Source: Clostridia bacterium (GTDB lineage: Bacteria > Bacillota > Clostridia > RGIG6154). Taken from it: 64,000 nt of DNA. Below the pieces are notes generated by a model. The model worked only from the letters and a program-made list of their open reading frames with translations, had not been told where the DNA came from and made no database searches. Positions 9,546 to 21,658 of the stretch are shown piece by piece (positions within the stretch are counted from its first letter, which is position 1; each line of letters begins with the position of its first letter). A program made the position numbers and the translations under genes. Location of the stretch: NCBI GenBank assembly GCA_017410375.1, contig JAFQQW010000069.1:1-64000 (forward strand). Reading direction: 5' to 3'.

Positions 9546-10616
9546 CTATAAACCAAAATCAAACTCTGCTTGAATTGCTGGAGGCTCTTCCCACGGAACT
9601 CCTATGTAGTCCAGCACACGCCCCCACCCATACGGTGTACCATCGTCATCCTTACAGCATTCATACATCCAAAACTTCCACGCTCGTTCGTTATCTTCGC
9701 GGAGCCTATCAAACCGATGCGGTCTTTTTTCAAGGTGAATTCCAAAGCCACATATATCGCACCCGGTCCTTTGAGCTTTTGTCGTATACAATGTACCGTC
9801 CGTATCTCTCTTTATCTCTCCATACGCCTCTGGAACAGGTACACTCAAATCCAATGCCAGCTGTAAAATATCCTGTCGCATAAACGGAGCAAACGGAGCG
9901 CTTCTTATAACATCTTTTCCGTAATAATTGCACCCATTTTTCATCAGCGCAAACTCTCGTTGCCCCCCCTCGGACGCCATAAGTCCAAGATAGGGAAAAC
10001 TGTTATGCGCTTTCGCCCAATTATCGCACGGTTCTTCTTTCATAAGCTTGCAACATATTGCAGAACACTTAAACTTTGCGCATTTGCATGCTAAATCCGG
10101 TCTATGTTCGTTGTAATGCCCCGCAAATAATTTTAGCCATTTGTCAGGAAGTTTTATTTTGTTTGAATGTTGAAACTTGCCTTGTTGGCCCATGTCACCG
10201 GTCATAATCGCGTGAATAAAGGTTTGTTTTTCAGCATCCGGATTTTGCAAAATTTCGATTTTATGTGCTTTTGCCTTACTTATAACAGGAAATCCGTGCT
10301 CTTGCAAAATTTTATGTTTAGGAACGCTTGGATAAATAGGAATAACACCTAACTGTTTGTGTATCTTGCGTATACTCTTATGTTCCAAAACTGTACAACC
10401 GATCGCAGGAATTTCTCGCTCTGAATATCCAAGTTTTCTAATGAACATCAGTAGCGTAATGGAATCGAGTCCTCCAACACTGATGTGTACATTAGCATCT
10501 CTGACACCGGTTATTTCGTTGAAAAATTCGTGAATTCTTTGTTCAGCTTTTCTTACTTTTATCTCATACGGCAATCTTTGTAACGCAACAAATTTAGAAA
10601 TGTAATCATCTTTCAT
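9546..10616 (-). CDS. PAPS reductase-like (PP-loop) prophage protein
   Basis: A 356-residue protein of the phage phosphoadenosine-phosphosulfate reductase-like family, related to DndC and ThiI-type PP-loop ATP pyrophosphatases. The nucleotide loop sits at residues 46-52 but reads SVGGLDS instead of the usual SGGxDS. Two Cys-rich segments follow: CKCAKFKCSAICC in the middle and GCDICGFG near residue 290, fitting an iron-sulfur or zinc site. Such genes in phages may take part in sulfur transfer or DNA modification, but no dnd or 7-deazaguanine partner genes are next to it. An AAAGGAG site precedes the start. Confidence 0.75.
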   Translation of the reverse strand: MKDDYISKFVALQRLPYEIKVRKAEQRIHEFFNEITGVRDANVHISVGGLDSITLLMFIRKLGYSEREIPAIGCTVLEHKSIRKIHKQLGVIPIYPSVPKHKILQEHGFPVISKAKAHKIEILQNPDAEKQTFIHAIMTGDMGQQGKFQHSNKIKLPDKWLKLFAGHYNEHRPDLACKCAKFKCSAICCKLMKEEPCDNWAKAHNSFPYLGLMASEGGQREFALMKNGCNYYGKDVIRSAPFAPFMRQDILQLALDLSVPVPEAYGEIKRDTDGTLYTTKAQRTGCDICGFGIHLEKRPHRFDRLREDNERAWKFWMYECCKDDDGTPYGWGRVLDYIGVPWEEPPAIQAEFDFGL

Positions 10617-18031: not shown

Positions 18032-18700
18032 ATGACTTTAGGAGATAAAATCAGACATCTTCGTGAAAATAGAAATATGACACAAACGGATGTCGCAAAG
18101 CGTGTAGGCATTGCAACACAAACTATATTTAAATATGAGAAGGGTATGGTAACGAATATTCCTTTGGAAAATATTGAAAAACTGGCTGATATTTTCGAAG
18201 TATCTCCTTCCTATTTAATGGGCTGGGAAGAAAAAGACGAAACTACCTTCAATATCGAAGACAGACTTCTTCCTCCCACTATCACCGAAGACACCGTCAC
18301 CTTCCCTATCCTTGGCGAAATTGCTGCAGGCTACGACATGATAGCCGTAGAGGACTGGTCCGGTGAAACCATAGAAATTCCTCGCTACTATTTAAAAGGA
18401 AGACCCATGGAGGATTATTTCGTCCTTCGCGTGCATGGAGACAGTATGTATCCGCAGTACCAGGACGGAGACATCGTGCTTATTTTAAAGCAAACCACCC
18501 TAAATCGATCGGGCGAAATCGGTGCCGTTATATACGAAGATGACACCGCAACACTTAAAAAGGTAGAATATGTCCCGGGGGAGGATTGGATGGAAATGAT
18601 TCCGCTGAATCCTGAATTCAAACCCAAACGAATCGAAGGCGAAGCTTTAGAGCATTGCCGTATACTTGGTATCCCGAAATTGCTTATTCGAGAAATTTAA
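18032..18700 (+). CDS. LexA-like (CI-type) prophage repressor
   Basis: A 222-residue protein with an N-terminal XRE helix-turn-helix (about residues 6-62) and a C-terminal S24 peptidase domain. The self-cleavage site is Ala99-Gly100, the nucleophile Ser138 lies in HGDSMYP and the general base is Lys176 in TLKKV. All residues needed for RecA-stimulated autocleavage are present, so the prophage should respond to DNA damage. A GAGGTGA site precedes the ATG. It maintains lysogeny through the operators just upstream. Confidence 0.92.
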   Translation: MTLGDKIRHLRENRNMTQTDVAKRVGIATQTIFKYEKGMVTNIPLENIEKLADIFEVSPSYLMGWEEKDETTFNIEDRLLPPTITEDTVTFPILGEIAAGYDMIAVEDWSGETIEIPRYYLKGRPMEDYFVLRVHGDSMYPQYQDGDIVLILKQTTLNRSGEIGAVIYEDDTATLKKVEYVPGEDWMEMIPLNPEFKPKRIEGEALEHCRILGIPKLLIREI

Positions 18701-18711
18701 AGATAAAAATA

Positions 18712-18759
18712 TTGACAAACCGATTTTTATATCATATAATGTAACTAAAGATTAGTTAC
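18712..18759 (+). promoter_or_regulatory. Perfect consensus promoter with palindromic operator for hicA-hicB-secB
   Basis: TTGACA (18712-18717), 17-bp spacer, TATAAT (18735-18740), then at once a perfect 8-bp inverted repeat GTAACTAA-AGA-TTAGTTAC (18741-18759) covering the expected start point. The ribbon-helix-helix part of HicB is the likely ligand, giving autoregulation of the cassette. Confidence 0.85.
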
Positions 18760-18774
18760 AAAAAAGGACGTGAA

Positions 18775-19044
18775 TTGTTTTTGCCAAAGAAAGAAAAACT
18801 AATCGAAAAACTATGTAGAAAACCGATGCCTTCCAATTTCACTATAATGGAGTTAGATAACCTTATGCGATATTGTGATTGCGAAAAGCATCAGGGTGGA
18901 CGAGGTTCAAGCATAATATATTATCACAAACCAACAGGAAGAATTTTACAATTTGACGGACCTCACCCCGGGAAAGAACTATATAAACATCACGTAAAAG
19001 CTACTATTAATTTCTTAGAATCAATAGATATAATAAAAAAATAA
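18775..19044 (+). CDS. hicA: HicA-type toxin (mRNA interferase family)
   Basis: An 89-residue protein from a TTG start (TTG at 18775 or 18781) with GGACGTGA just upstream. It shows the HicA pattern GGRGSS-IIYYH-PTGRILQFDGPHPGKEL. In many HicA proteins the site after GS is a catalytic His (GSH); here it is Ser, while His50 and His63 remain, so activity is uncertain although several Firmicute members also vary here. HicA is a small double-stranded-RNA-binding-fold ribonuclease that stops translation. It is the first gene of a cassette with an antitoxin and a chaperone. Confidence 0.82.
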   Translation: MFLPKKEKLIEKLCRKPMPSNFTIMELDNLMRYCDCEKHQGGRGSSIIYYHKPTGRILQFDGPHPGKELYKHHVKATINFLESIDIIKK

Positions 19045-19057
19045 AGGAGTGAATTGC

Positions 19058-19531
19058 ATGAGCAAAATGTTGGAATATAAAGGTTATCACGCAACAGTTG
19101 AATACGATTACGATGATAAAATCCTTGTAGGTAAAGTTTACGGTCTTTCTGACTCATTAAACTTTCACGGTTCTTCAGATGATATAGAAAATATGTTTCA
19201 TCAAACCGTAGATAATTATTTAGACTTTTGCGAAAGCATCGGAAAAACACCGGAAAAAGAATACAGCGGTGTTTTCAACGTAAGAACATCTTCCGACTTA
19301 CACAAACGTTTGTCAGAATTTGCCCTTAAAAACGATATGACGATAAACGCTGTAGTAAACGATGCATTGGAAATTCATTTGCAAGAAAAAAGCGAAAAAC
19401 ATAGTACTATCCCTTATACAATACTACCTATGTTATTTGACACTAGCAAATATCAAAAAAACAACACATCAATTCAGACGAAAGGAAGCTTTAGCTATGA
19501 TAGCAACTTTAAAACAATATGCCATCAATAA
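19058..19531 (+). CDS. hicB: HicB antitoxin with extra C-terminal tail
   Basis: A 157-residue protein from ATG at 19058 (AAAGGAGTGA site). Residues 4-70 are the HicB partial RNase H-like fold (YKGYHATVEYDYDDK, DNYLDFC). Residues 72-108 are a ribbon-helix-helix DNA-binding domain (GVFNVRTSSDLHKRLSEF). About 48 further residues follow, with a hydrophobic patch IPYTILPMLF. Ordinary HicB ends near residue 110. In toxin-antitoxin-chaperone systems such a tail (the chaperone addiction region) makes the antitoxin depend on a SecB-like chaperone, and just such a gene overlaps this one by 35 bases. Confidence 0.85.
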   Translation: MSKMLEYKGYHATVEYDYDDKILVGKVYGLSDSLNFHGSSDDIENMFHQTVDNYLDFCESIGKTPEKEYSGVFNVRTSSDLHKRLSEFALKNDMTINAVVNDALEIHLQEKSEKHSTIPYTILPMLFDTSKYQKNNTSIQTKGSFSYDSNFKTICHQ

Positions 19532-19874
19532 AAATTTCATAGAAATAAAACCTGCCGACAATGGAAGTGCCAAGCTGAGCGTAGAAGTTAATACAAAAAT
19601 AAACCCACCAAAGTCTAAAGAGGATAACAAAACTGCGCATTTCAAGCTTGATGTAAACATCAGAAGCATAGAAAACGAAATGATTGCAATCTCACTTGAA
19701 ATGAATTGCTTGTTTGAATTTGACGCACCACCAAAAGAATACAACGATAAAGTGTCCCAGGAATGTGCATCTGTTGCATTGCCGGAGCTTTCAGCAGTTC
19801 TCGACGGCACACTTCAACTTATGAAGTACCCTCCAATTGAACTGTGGAAAAACTTAGAGCCTCAAAATCAATAA
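19497..19874 (+). CDS. SecB-like chaperone of a toxin-antitoxin-chaperone cassette
   Basis: A 125-residue protein from ATG at 19497, with an AAAGGAA site, starting inside the hicB coding sequence in another frame. The pattern is SecB-like: paired beta strands (KLSVEVNTKI; HFKLDVNIR; IAISLEMNCLFEF), then a long helix with ALPELSAVLDGTLQLM and the family-typical end YPPIEL, which corresponds to GGFPPL in SecB. Firmicutes generally lack an export SecB, and the position behind HicB argues for antitoxin control instead of export. The call rests on fold-level pattern reading, so an unrelated protein of similar shape cannot be excluded. Confidence 0.62.
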   Translation: MIATLKQYAINKNFIEIKPADNGSAKLSVEVNTKINPPKSKEDNKTAHFKLDVNIRSIENEMIAISLEMNCLFEFDAPPKEYNDKVSQECASVALPELSAVLDGTLQLMKYPPIELWKNLEPQNQ

Positions 19875-19936
19875 TATATGTTCATAGCAGTAACCCTCCC
19901 ACTATCCGGGAATCGGCGAGCCTTTGAGCTTTTTGT

Positions 19937-19975
19937 TAAAAAAAACAACCCCCGGTACTGCAATACCGAGGATTG
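19937..19975 (-). terminator. Hairpin with U-run on the minus strand
   Basis: An imperfect stem (CGGTA/TACCG core at 953-957 and 964-968 of the 19.9-kb block) is preceded on the plus strand by eight A, so it acts as a terminator only for minus-strand transcription. No minus-strand gene lies to its right before the attachment site. It may stop read-through from the host side into the cassette. Confidence 0.5.
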
Positions 19976-19982
19976 TAATAAA

Positions 19983-20040
19983 TAGAGTGCATATAGATAT
20001 ACACACTAATACCAACAAAAGTATATCACATTGCACTCTA
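19983..20040 (+). promoter_or_regulatory. Long hairpin before the integrase gene
   Basis: Perfect 9-bp arms TAGAGTGCA (19983-19991) and TGCACTCTA (20032-20040) enclose a second pair GATATAC/GTATATC (19996-20002, 20021-20027). The structure ends 39 bases before the integrase ATG. It could limit integrase expression or be a binding site for Xis or integrase arms. Confidence 0.55.
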
Positions 20041-20078
20041 CTTTGTCAACCCAAATTTATGCAAAGGAGTGCTGTATT

Positions 20079-21134
20079 ATGAAAAGAAGAGCAGACGGCA
20101 GATGGAAAAAAGCTGTAACCATTAACGGCAAACGCAAAACCTTCTACTCCACCGCAAAAACCGAAAAGCAAGCCGAACGGGACCTCTTGCAGCAGATTAT
20201 GAATTTTAACGAAGCAGAGGAACGCGGCGCGCTGTTTGTAGAGGTTGCAGACAAATGGGAACGGGACCACCTTCCCAAACTTGCCCACAGTACGGCTGAA
20301 GGCTACAAGTCTCTGATTGCGTTTGCAATGAAATATTTTGAATACGCTTACATAAAAGATATAAGACCAATTCACATAAAGCAATTCATGCAGAAGAAAA
20401 TCAACCAAGGCTATTCCGCAAAACGTGTAGAACACCAAATGTCTGTTCTTGGCATGATTTTAAAATATGCTTGTATCGAAGGCTACATCACAGATAACCC
20501 TGCACAATATATAACCGTTCCGAAAGGACTTCCAAAAAAGCCAAGAACCATTCCGAACAAGCAGGAGATGGAAACAGTTAAAATCAGCACAGATGCACCA
20601 TTCGGTCTAATCGCATATACCCTTTTACATCTTGGTTTACGCAAAGGCGAACTCCTTGCTTTAGAAGCCACAGACATCGACCGAAAAAACAATCGTGTCC
20701 ATATAAACAAATCTGTATACTTCAAAGGCAACGCACCATATATCAAACGTCCAAAAACGCCCGCAGGAGAACGAACAGTTATTCTCCCTGAGTGTTTAAA
20801 GGAAGTTTTACCAAAACAGCATATCGGGTTGATTTTCCGCGGCAAAAACGGGCTCATGACACACTCAGAGTTCCAAAGCGGATGGAAAAGCTACCAAAAG
20901 TCAACCGGATTGAATATAACACCGCATCAGCTCCGTCATGCGTACGCAAGCTATATCTTGCACGATTCTAAAATCGACGTAAAGACAGCCCAGTACCTGA
21001 TGGGACACGCGGACATCTCCACCACTCAAAACATCTATACCCAAATCACAGAACAAGCATTGAGTGATGCAAGCCAACTGATTAGCGCACACCTTGAAGG
21101 TCAAAATGGTGTCAGCACCGCTACAGCCGACTAA
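20079..21134 (+). CDS. int: Phage tyrosine integrase
   Basis: A 351-residue tyrosine recombinase from ATG at 20079 with AAAGGAG upstream. The arm-binding N-terminus begins MKRRADGRWKK; a core-binding SAM-like domain spans about residues 55-145. The catalytic part shows the first Arg in HLGLRKGELLALE, the HxxR box in HQLRHAYASY, a further His in LMGHADISTT and the Tyr in QNIYTQI. All active-site residues are present. It ends 19 bases before a tRNA 3'-end fragment, as expected for integration at a tRNA gene. Confidence 0.95.
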   Translation: MKRRADGRWKKAVTINGKRKTFYSTAKTEKQAERDLLQQIMNFNEAEERGALFVEVADKWERDHLPKLAHSTAEGYKSLIAFAMKYFEYAYIKDIRPIHIKQFMQKKINQGYSAKRVEHQMSVLGMILKYACIEGYITDNPAQYITVPKGLPKKPRTIPNKQEMETVKISTDAPFGLIAYTLLHLGLRKGELLALEATDIDRKNNRVHINKSVYFKGNAPYIKRPKTPAGERTVILPECLKEVLPKQHIGLIFRGKNGLMTHSEFQSGWKSYQKSTGLNITPHQLRHAYASYILHDSKIDVKTAQYLMGHADISTTQNIYTQITEQALSDASQLISAHLEGQNGVSTATAD

Positions 21135-21181: not shown

Positions 21182-21206
21182 AAGACACCTGTTAAGGTGT
21201 CTTTTC
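21182..21206 (+). terminator. Terminator following the tRNA remnant
   Basis: Hairpin AAGACACC / GGTGTCTT with a T-rich tail, placed six bases after the CCA of the tRNA fragment. It is probably the original terminator of the host tRNA gene. Confidence 0.75.
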
Positions 21207-21222
21207 TTTTTGGTGAATTTTG

Positions 21223-21620
21223 TTCGAAGTCGAACCCCGGACGAGGGGCGCGAGCCCGAAGCGCTGCCGGTGGCAGATGAAGCGAGGCGCTCGCGGCGCA
21301 GCAACCAAAATTGCGCCCGATGAGGGCAAGCAATTTTGTGCGTTGCAAGAGGGCTTTGTTCGCTCAATCCAATATGAGGGCTACTCCGAAACACCTGTTA
21401 AGGTGTCTTTTTTGTTTGGTGATTATTCGAAGTCGAACCCCGGACGAGGGGCGCGAGCCCGAAGCGCTACCGGTGGCAGATGAAGCAAGGTGCTCGCGGC
21501 GCAGCAACCAAAATTGCGCCCGATGAGGGCAAGCAATTTTGTGCGTTGCAAGAGGGCTTTGTTCGCTCAATCCAATATGAGGGCTACTCCGGAACACCTT
21601 TTAAGGCGTCTTTTCTTTTT
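21223..21620. repeat. Two tandem copies of a 203-bp GC-rich repeat
   Basis: Unit 1 spans 21223-21425 and unit 2 runs from 21426 to about 21620; they differ at only a few positions. Each unit begins TTCGAAGTCGAACCCCGG, contains several short inverted repeats (such as AAAATTGC/GCAATTTT) and ends in a copy of the ACACCT-AAGGTGT hairpin that also follows the tRNA remnant. The GC content is clearly above that of the flanks. No convincing gene is present in 21135-21661. Confidence 0.85.
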
Positions 21621-21625
21621 AGCAC

Positions 21626-21658
21626 AAAAACCACCTTACCGTCACAGTAAGGTGGTTT
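21626..21658 (-). terminator. Terminator of the mutS2 transcript
   Basis: Hairpin AACCACCTTAC / GTAAGGTGGTT with the loop CGTCACA, with A-run and T-run flanks. It follows the stop of the minus-strand gene at 21662. It is almost identical to the hairpin at 876-909 within the prophage. Confidence 0.8.

What the first reader, a model, noticed from the sequence alone, without database searches (positions are those of the whole stretch)
18712..19874. HicA-HicB-SecB toxin-antitoxin-chaperone cassette in a prophage of a Gram-positive bacterium
Three overlapping genes under one perfect promoter encode a HicA toxin, a HicB antitoxin with a 48-residue C-terminal tail beyond its ribbon-helix-helix, and a SecB-like protein. 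Known toxin-antitoxin-chaperone systems (HigBA-SecB in Mycobacterium, the phage-sensing CmdTAC system in E. coli) use just such a tail to tie the antitoxin to the chaperone. Firmicutes usually have no SecB. The position between repressor and integrase is where prophages keep superinfection-defence genes, so an anti-phage role with sensing of foreign phage proteins is a natural hypothesis.
Basis: partly seen in the sequence, partly recalled or inferred. Interest (0 to 1): 0.85.

Follow-up and report, generated by a model that had tools for sequence, protein, structure and literature searches.

The report
Prophage toxin-antitoxin-chaperone operon (HicAB plus SecB-like)
A prophage in a Clostridia-class bacterium carries a small operon for an RNA-cutting-type toxin, its antitoxin with an extra tail, and a very diverged SecB-like chaperone that probably guards the antitoxin: a new, well-hidden member of a known family of systems, some of which stop phages.

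Summary
A perfect sigma-70 promoter, hicA, hicB with a 47-residue C-terminal tail, and a 125-residue third gene lie between a CI-like repressor and a tyrosine integrase in a real prophage. No Pfam, PHROG, NCBIfam, PADLOC or PDB-sequence search names the third gene. It is nevertheless significantly SecB-like: first of 448 frames against a SecB profile built without it, above all 2000 shuffles. Tail and third gene go together: 40 other hicB records (many near-identical) have no tail. A second Clostridia prophage has the same hicA - tailed hicB - SecB-like order; a third locus (L086) has a tailed hicB plus a non-SecB third gene. I conclude it is a HicAB-type toxin-antitoxin-chaperone (TAC) module. 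That kind is known and shown functional (Methylomonas Mmet-TAC, 2016), so this is a new member, notable for its Clostridia prophage setting and a chaperone that annotation misses. An anti-phage role by analogy with CmdTAC and MqsRAC is plausible but untested. A conserved HicB-type operator (GYAACTA-N4/5-TAGTTRC) sits at the promoter. The fold model that matches SecB used SecB-like sequences, so it is partly circular; the model without them was inconclusive.

The parts
18712..18740 (+). sigma-70-type promoter TTGACA-17-TATAAT
   Evidence: consensus scan, 12 of 12
18741..18759 (.). palindromic operator GTAACTA-AAGAT-TAGTTAC directly after the -10 box, presumed HicB binding site
   Evidence: 14 of 14 to GYAACTA-N5-TAGTTRC, 0 of 300 shuffles; same motif upstream of hicA in many Clostridia hicAB loci
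18781..19044 (+). hicA toxin gene (TTG start 18781 or 18775)
   Evidence: Pfam HicA 5.7e-6, PHROG 8887 1.3e-11; 58-64% identical to Clostridia HicA proteins
19058..19531 (+). hicB antitoxin gene, HicB core plus ribbon-helix-helix, with C-terminal extension
   Evidence: Pfam HicB 4.6e-15, PHROG 9151 1.5e-34
19388..19528 (+). HicB C-terminal tail of 47 residues, presumed chaperone-addiction (ChAD) region
   Evidence: absent from 40 other HicB records; present in L028/L074 (46 aa) and L086 (74 aa)
19497..19874 (+). third gene, 125-aa SecB-like chaperone
   Evidence: hhalign P=5e-5 and score 32 vs shuffle maximum 19.6; strict HMM E=6.8e-5, rank 1 of 448 frames
18032..18700 (+). CI/LexA-like repressor (context)
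   Evidence: Pfam HTH_3 and Peptidase_S24, PHROG 4
20031..21134 (+). tyrosine integrase (context; probable ATG at 20081)
   Evidence: Pfam Phage_integrase 2.6e-19, PHROG 1 8.7e-66

Best explanation
The locus is a HicAB-type toxin-antitoxin-chaperone (TAC) operon carried as an accessory gene set by a prophage. SHOWN by sequence: one promoter with a HicB-type operator, HicA, HicB with an extra tail, and a SecB-like third protein. INFERRED: HicB with its tail is prone to aggregate or be degraded unless the SecB-like tetramer holds the tail. While it is held, HicB binds HicA and represses the operon. When the chaperone is drawn away by another client, for example a newly made structural protein of an invading phage, HicB is lost, HicA cleaves RNA, and growth or phage production stops. 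The most likely benefit to the prophage is exclusion of competing phages, with prophage stabilisation as a by-product. I put the TAC composition at about 0.8, chaperone control of HicB at about 0.7, and phage defence as the selected role at about 0.45.
For: HicA and HicB family hits. Tail of 47 aa against at most 19 aa in 40 other HicB records (many of these are near-identical Butyrivibrio copies). SecB homology of the third gene: hhalign 32.0 against a maximum of 19.6 in 300 shuffles and 18.4 in 119 natural frames. A profile of 15 SecB-likes, including E. coli SecB and none recruited with this protein, gives E=6.8e-5 and rank 1 of 448 frames, with all 2000 shuffles at 7.9 bits or less. AlphaFold2 without an alignment gives the strand-strand-strand-strand-helix order at low confidence. 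With three SecB-like sequences the model matches E. coli SecB (Z 11.6, rmsd 3.5, 118 aligned) and M. tuberculosis Rv1957, the TAC chaperone (Z 10.8), next unrelated hit 5.8. Second instance with the same gene order, a 46-aa tail and a SecB-like third gene in L028/L074, an IMG/VR prophage. Conserved operator. Literature: Mmet-TAC, a HicAB-SecB system with ChAD at HicB residues 119-159, is a bona fide TAC (PMC5105189); CmdTAC senses capsid through its SecB-like chaperone (PMC11618068); MqsRAC protects against T2 (PMC9519451).
Against: The third gene has no close homologue and misses the Pfam SecB model. The confident-looking SecB match depends on a model built with SecB-like sequences and has mean pLDDT of only 58.7. 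The HicB tail does not end in the LAA-type degron seen in several TAC antitoxins. The HicA carries Ser where classical HicA proteins have the catalytic His after the GS motif (own knowledge; alignment), so toxicity is not certain. No protein complex could be modelled here. L086 has the tail with a third gene that is not SecB-like.
Confidence: 0.75

Rival explanations
1. An ordinary two-component HicAB pair that happens to sit beside an unrelated or uncoupled prophage gene; the tail is a neutral extension.
For: Most Clostridia hicAB loci, including the nearest HicA/HicB relatives in Butyrivibrio, are two-component. No complex could be tested.
Against: Tail and third gene co-occur in the three tailed loci seen and in none of the others. 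hicB and the third gene overlap and share a promoter. Two of the three third genes score as SecB-like, a fold found in this class in only 27 of 391 genomes.
Confidence: 0.15
2. A genuine HicAB-SecB TAC whose main role is prophage stabilisation or stress response rather than phage defence.
For: TAC systems have been linked to stress: M. tuberculosis TAC responds to stress (PMC5105189). No phage challenge data exist for HicAB-type TACs in the papers read.
Against: Position between repressor and integrase in a prophage; related TACs (CmdTAC, MqsRAC) defend against phages; CmdTAC-like cassettes are on IMG/VR viral contigs.
Confidence: 0.35
3. The third protein is an orphan beta-rich protein that is not a chaperone; HicB's tail binds it for another purpose.
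For: No family hit anywhere; the model without SecB-like sequences has pLDDT 45.6 and inconclusive fold matches. L086 shows that a tailed HicB can come with a non-SecB third gene.
Against: Profile statistics that exclude shuffles and all other frames and colinear alignment over about 95 residues.
Confidence: 0.12

Closest known systems
Mmet-TAC (HicAB-SecB of Methylomonas methanica MC09, Metme_2813-2812; PMC5105189)
   Same: HicA toxin, HicB antitoxin with a C-terminal extension of about 40-47 residues, SecB-like third gene; there the chaperone is required for toxin inhibition
   Different: Proteobacterial host; this one is in a Clostridia prophage, with a chaperone too diverged for the Pfam SecB model; function untested here; direct sequence comparison with Mmet not made
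Rv1955-1957 TAC of M. tuberculosis (HigBA1-SecBTA; 5mtw)
   Same: toxin-antitoxin-SecB-like operon with an antitoxin tail; model of the third protein matches Rv1957 (Z 10.8; partly circular)
   Different: toxin/antitoxin family is HigBA; tail sequences unrelated
CmdTAC / PD-T4-9 of E. coli (PMC11618068)
   Same: three-gene toxin-antitoxin-SecB-like order; proposed model for phage sensing by the chaperone
   Different: toxin is an mRNA ADP-ribosyltransferase, not HicA; antitoxin ends in LAA, HicB here does not
hicAB-third-gene cassette of L028/L074 (Clostridia prophage, IMGVR_UViG_2642422588_000002)
   Same: same gene order, HicB tail of 46 aa, SecB-like third gene, same operator
   Different: third proteins share no BLAST similarity; HicA 30% and HicB 36% identical; located beside a LysM lysin at the prophage edge

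Membership tests
HicAB-type toxin-antitoxin-chaperone (TAC) systems | HicA toxin and HicB antitoxin in one operon | tested here: met
   PHROG 8887 1.3e-11 and Pfam HicA 26.8 bits (cut-off 27); Pfam HicB 4.6e-15; shared promoter
HicAB-type toxin-antitoxin-chaperone (TAC) systems | antitoxin with a C-terminal extension beyond the conserved domain | tested here: met
   47 residues beyond the core against at most 19 in 40 other HicB records
HicAB-type toxin-antitoxin-chaperone (TAC) systems | SecB-like chaperone in the same operon | tested here: met
   profile statistics; met at sequence-profile level, below the Pfam SecB cut-off
HicAB-type toxin-antitoxin-chaperone (TAC) systems | toxin inhibition requires the chaperone; tail confers that dependence | not testable with these tools
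   needs expression and rescue tests
SecB family (Pfam PF02556) | match to the Pfam SecB model | tested here: not met
   no hit up to E=1; no PF02556 match in the genome
SecB fold | four-stranded antiparallel sheet followed by helices, tetrameric | tested here: inconclusive
   alignment-free model pLDDT 45.6 with the right element order; SecB-guided model Z 11.6 to SecB but partly circular; tetramer not tested
HicA toxins | catalytic His after the GS motif (own knowledge) | tested here: not met
   alignment shows GSS in the window, GSG in Butyrivibrio, GSR in L028; His51 and His64 are the remaining candidates
anti-phage TAC (CmdTAC, MqsRAC) | protection against phage infection | not testable with these tools
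   no phage assay; PADLOC has no match for the three proteins

The most novel reading that the evidence does not exclude
In Clostridia mobile elements the HicB tail is an exchangeable sensor slot: related HicAB pairs have independently acquired different third genes (two mutually dissimilar SecB-like chaperones in the window and L028, a non-SecB 83-aa protein in L086), each reporting a different phage signal to the same toxin switch.
Probability: 0.2. Interest if true: 0.65.

Novelty: new member of a known kind. Interest (0 to 1): 0.45.

Why it matters
It shows that TAC modules with HicAB occur in prophages of Clostridia, where annotation misses them because the chaperone is diverged beyond current family models. 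If the chaperone senses phage proteins, prophages would carry modular, chaperone-based alarms, and such loci could be found by looking for tailed antitoxins rather than for SecB.

Tried and rejected
Direct searches for close homologues of the third gene in 398 phylum and 391 class genomes, phages, plasmids and IMG/VR found none; the weak hits were chance alignments with no HicAB nearby. HicA and HicB scans of IMG/VR found none. PDB sequence searches found none for HicA or the third gene. The AlphaFold model without an alignment gave no decisive fold match; SecB was only rank 18 and was absent from the listed VIA rows. BLASTP between the two third proteins found nothing. Rfam found nothing above threshold near the cassette. 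A broad SecB alignment could not be used as a scan query.

Full report
Observation. A perfect -35/-10 promoter (18712-18740) precedes hicA (18775-19044; likely start TTG 18781), hicB (19058-19531) and a third gene (19497-19874). HicA reaches 26.8 bits on Pfam HicA (cut-off 27) and 1.3e-11 on PHROG 8887; HicB reaches 4.6e-15 on Pfam HicB and 1.5e-34 on PHROG 9151. Only hicB and the third gene overlap (35 nt). The third frame is the only one of six with coding-like codon use. The setting is a genuine prophage: CI-like repressor and integrase flank the cassette, and Sak4, ERCC4-type nuclease, primase/helicase, terminase, portal and minor head protein genes lie to its left. The window starts at base 1 of its contig, so the left prophage end is not seen.

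The tail. I measured residues after the conserved HicB core in every HicB locus fetched. The window has 47, L028 and its IMG/VR copy L074 have 46, L086 has 74, and the other 40 records have 19 or fewer. Most of the records from the genome-contig scan are one Butyrivibrio lineage, so they are not independent cases; the class-wide sample alone gives 24 tail-less loci besides L028. All three tailed HicB loci are followed at once by a co-directional third gene.

The third gene. Pfam, PHROGs, NCBIfam, PADLOC and PDB sequences give nothing, and no close relative was found in two samples of 398 phylum and 391 class genomes, in phages, plasmids or viral contigs. Against a profile of ten Clostridia SecB-like proteins found by PF02556 alone, hhalign gives P=5e-5 over 95 columns. 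The score of 32.0 compares with a maximum of 19.6 in 300 shuffles and 18.4 in 119 natural frames. The larger 32-sequence profile gives 8e-8, but some of its members were recruited with an alignment that held this protein. AlphaFold2 on the single sequence gives four strands then a helix at pLDDT 45.6; fold searches with it were not decisive. With three SecB-like sequences from viral contigs the model (pLDDT 58.7, pTM 0.54) matches E. coli SecB at Z 11.6, Rv1957 at 10.8 and Streptococcus SP1558-type proteins at about 10, against 5.8 for the next unrelated chain. Because the alignment contained SecB-like proteins this is compatibility, not independent proof.

Relatives. L028 (genome G645; also IMGVR_UViG_2642422588_000002, L074) has hicA, tailed hicB and a 140-aa third gene overlapping the hicB stop by 4 nt. 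This third protein is not BLAST-similar to the window's. Its SecB-likeness is weaker on the strict profile (8.2 bits, second of 448) and clear on the larger one, which includes similar solitary proteins L122-L124. L086 (Clostridiales MAG) has a 58% identical HicA, a HicB with a 74-residue tail and an 83-aa third gene that is not SecB-like, next to a serine recombinase. In the sampled class, 27 of 391 genomes hold SecB-like genes. By inspection of neighbours two are with hicAB, several are CmdTAC-like, about eight follow HigBA/MqsRA-like pairs, and the rest appear solitary.

Regulation. A palindrome GTAACTA-AAGAT-TAGTTAC (18741-18759) directly follows the -10 box. The same GYAACTA-N4/5-TAGTTRC motif lies upstream of hicA in most of the Clostridia hicAB loci tested, with none of 300 shuffles reaching the score in the best cases. 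This is the expected place for HicB autorepression; binding itself is inferred.

Mechanism and function. The HicAB-SecB combination is a known TAC type: the Methylomonas system requires its chaperone for toxin inhibition and its HicB residues 119-159 confer that need (PMC5105189). CmdTAC's chaperone is titrated by T4 capsid protein (PMC11618068) and MqsRAC protects against T2 (PMC9519451). By analogy the window's chaperone would protect HicB through the tail and release HicA when diverted. This is inference. Cautions are the missing classical HicA histidine, the absence of an LAA-type end on HicB and the lack of any experimental or complex data.

Verdict. New member of a known kind, in an unusual place and with a chaperone that annotation misses. 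Interest is moderate.

Noticed in passing
window 19938-20049, minus strand: Promoter-like TTGACA-18-TATACT followed by a 5' hairpin and a strong terminator hairpin with a T run: a probable ~76-nt RNA (z -6.4) or small hydrophobic ORF 19902-20036(-) between the third gene and the integrase. L086 1450-1545(-) has the same layout next to its recombinase.
   Followed up: partly
L096-L099, L053, L094, L109, L112: CmdTAC-like cassettes (ART-like toxin, antitoxin usually ending in AA, SecB-like chaperone) in Clostridia genomes and IMG/VR viral contigs; several match PADLOC PD-T4-9 models.
   Followed up: partly
L086 241-1359: HicAB with a 74-residue HicB tail and an 83-aa non-SecB third gene, beside a serine recombinase: possible TAC-like variant with a different third partner.
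   Followed up: partly
upstream of hicA in Clostridia hicAB loci: Conserved operator-like palindrome GYAACTA-N4/5-TAGTTRC in two-component and tailed systems alike.
   Followed up: yes
L028 900-2520: The second cassette lies between a LysM-type lysin gene and what looks like the 3' end of a tRNA, i.e. at the prophage edge (tRNA not run through a finder).
   Followed up: no
window 21185-21630: Two 198-bp direct repeats (95% identical, spacing 203) just right of the integrase, with weak sub-threshold guanidine-III riboswitch matches; could relate to the attachment region.
   Followed up: no
window 9546-10616, minus strand: Phosphoadenosine phosphosulfate reductase-like gene in the prophage (PHROG 424).
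   Followed up: no
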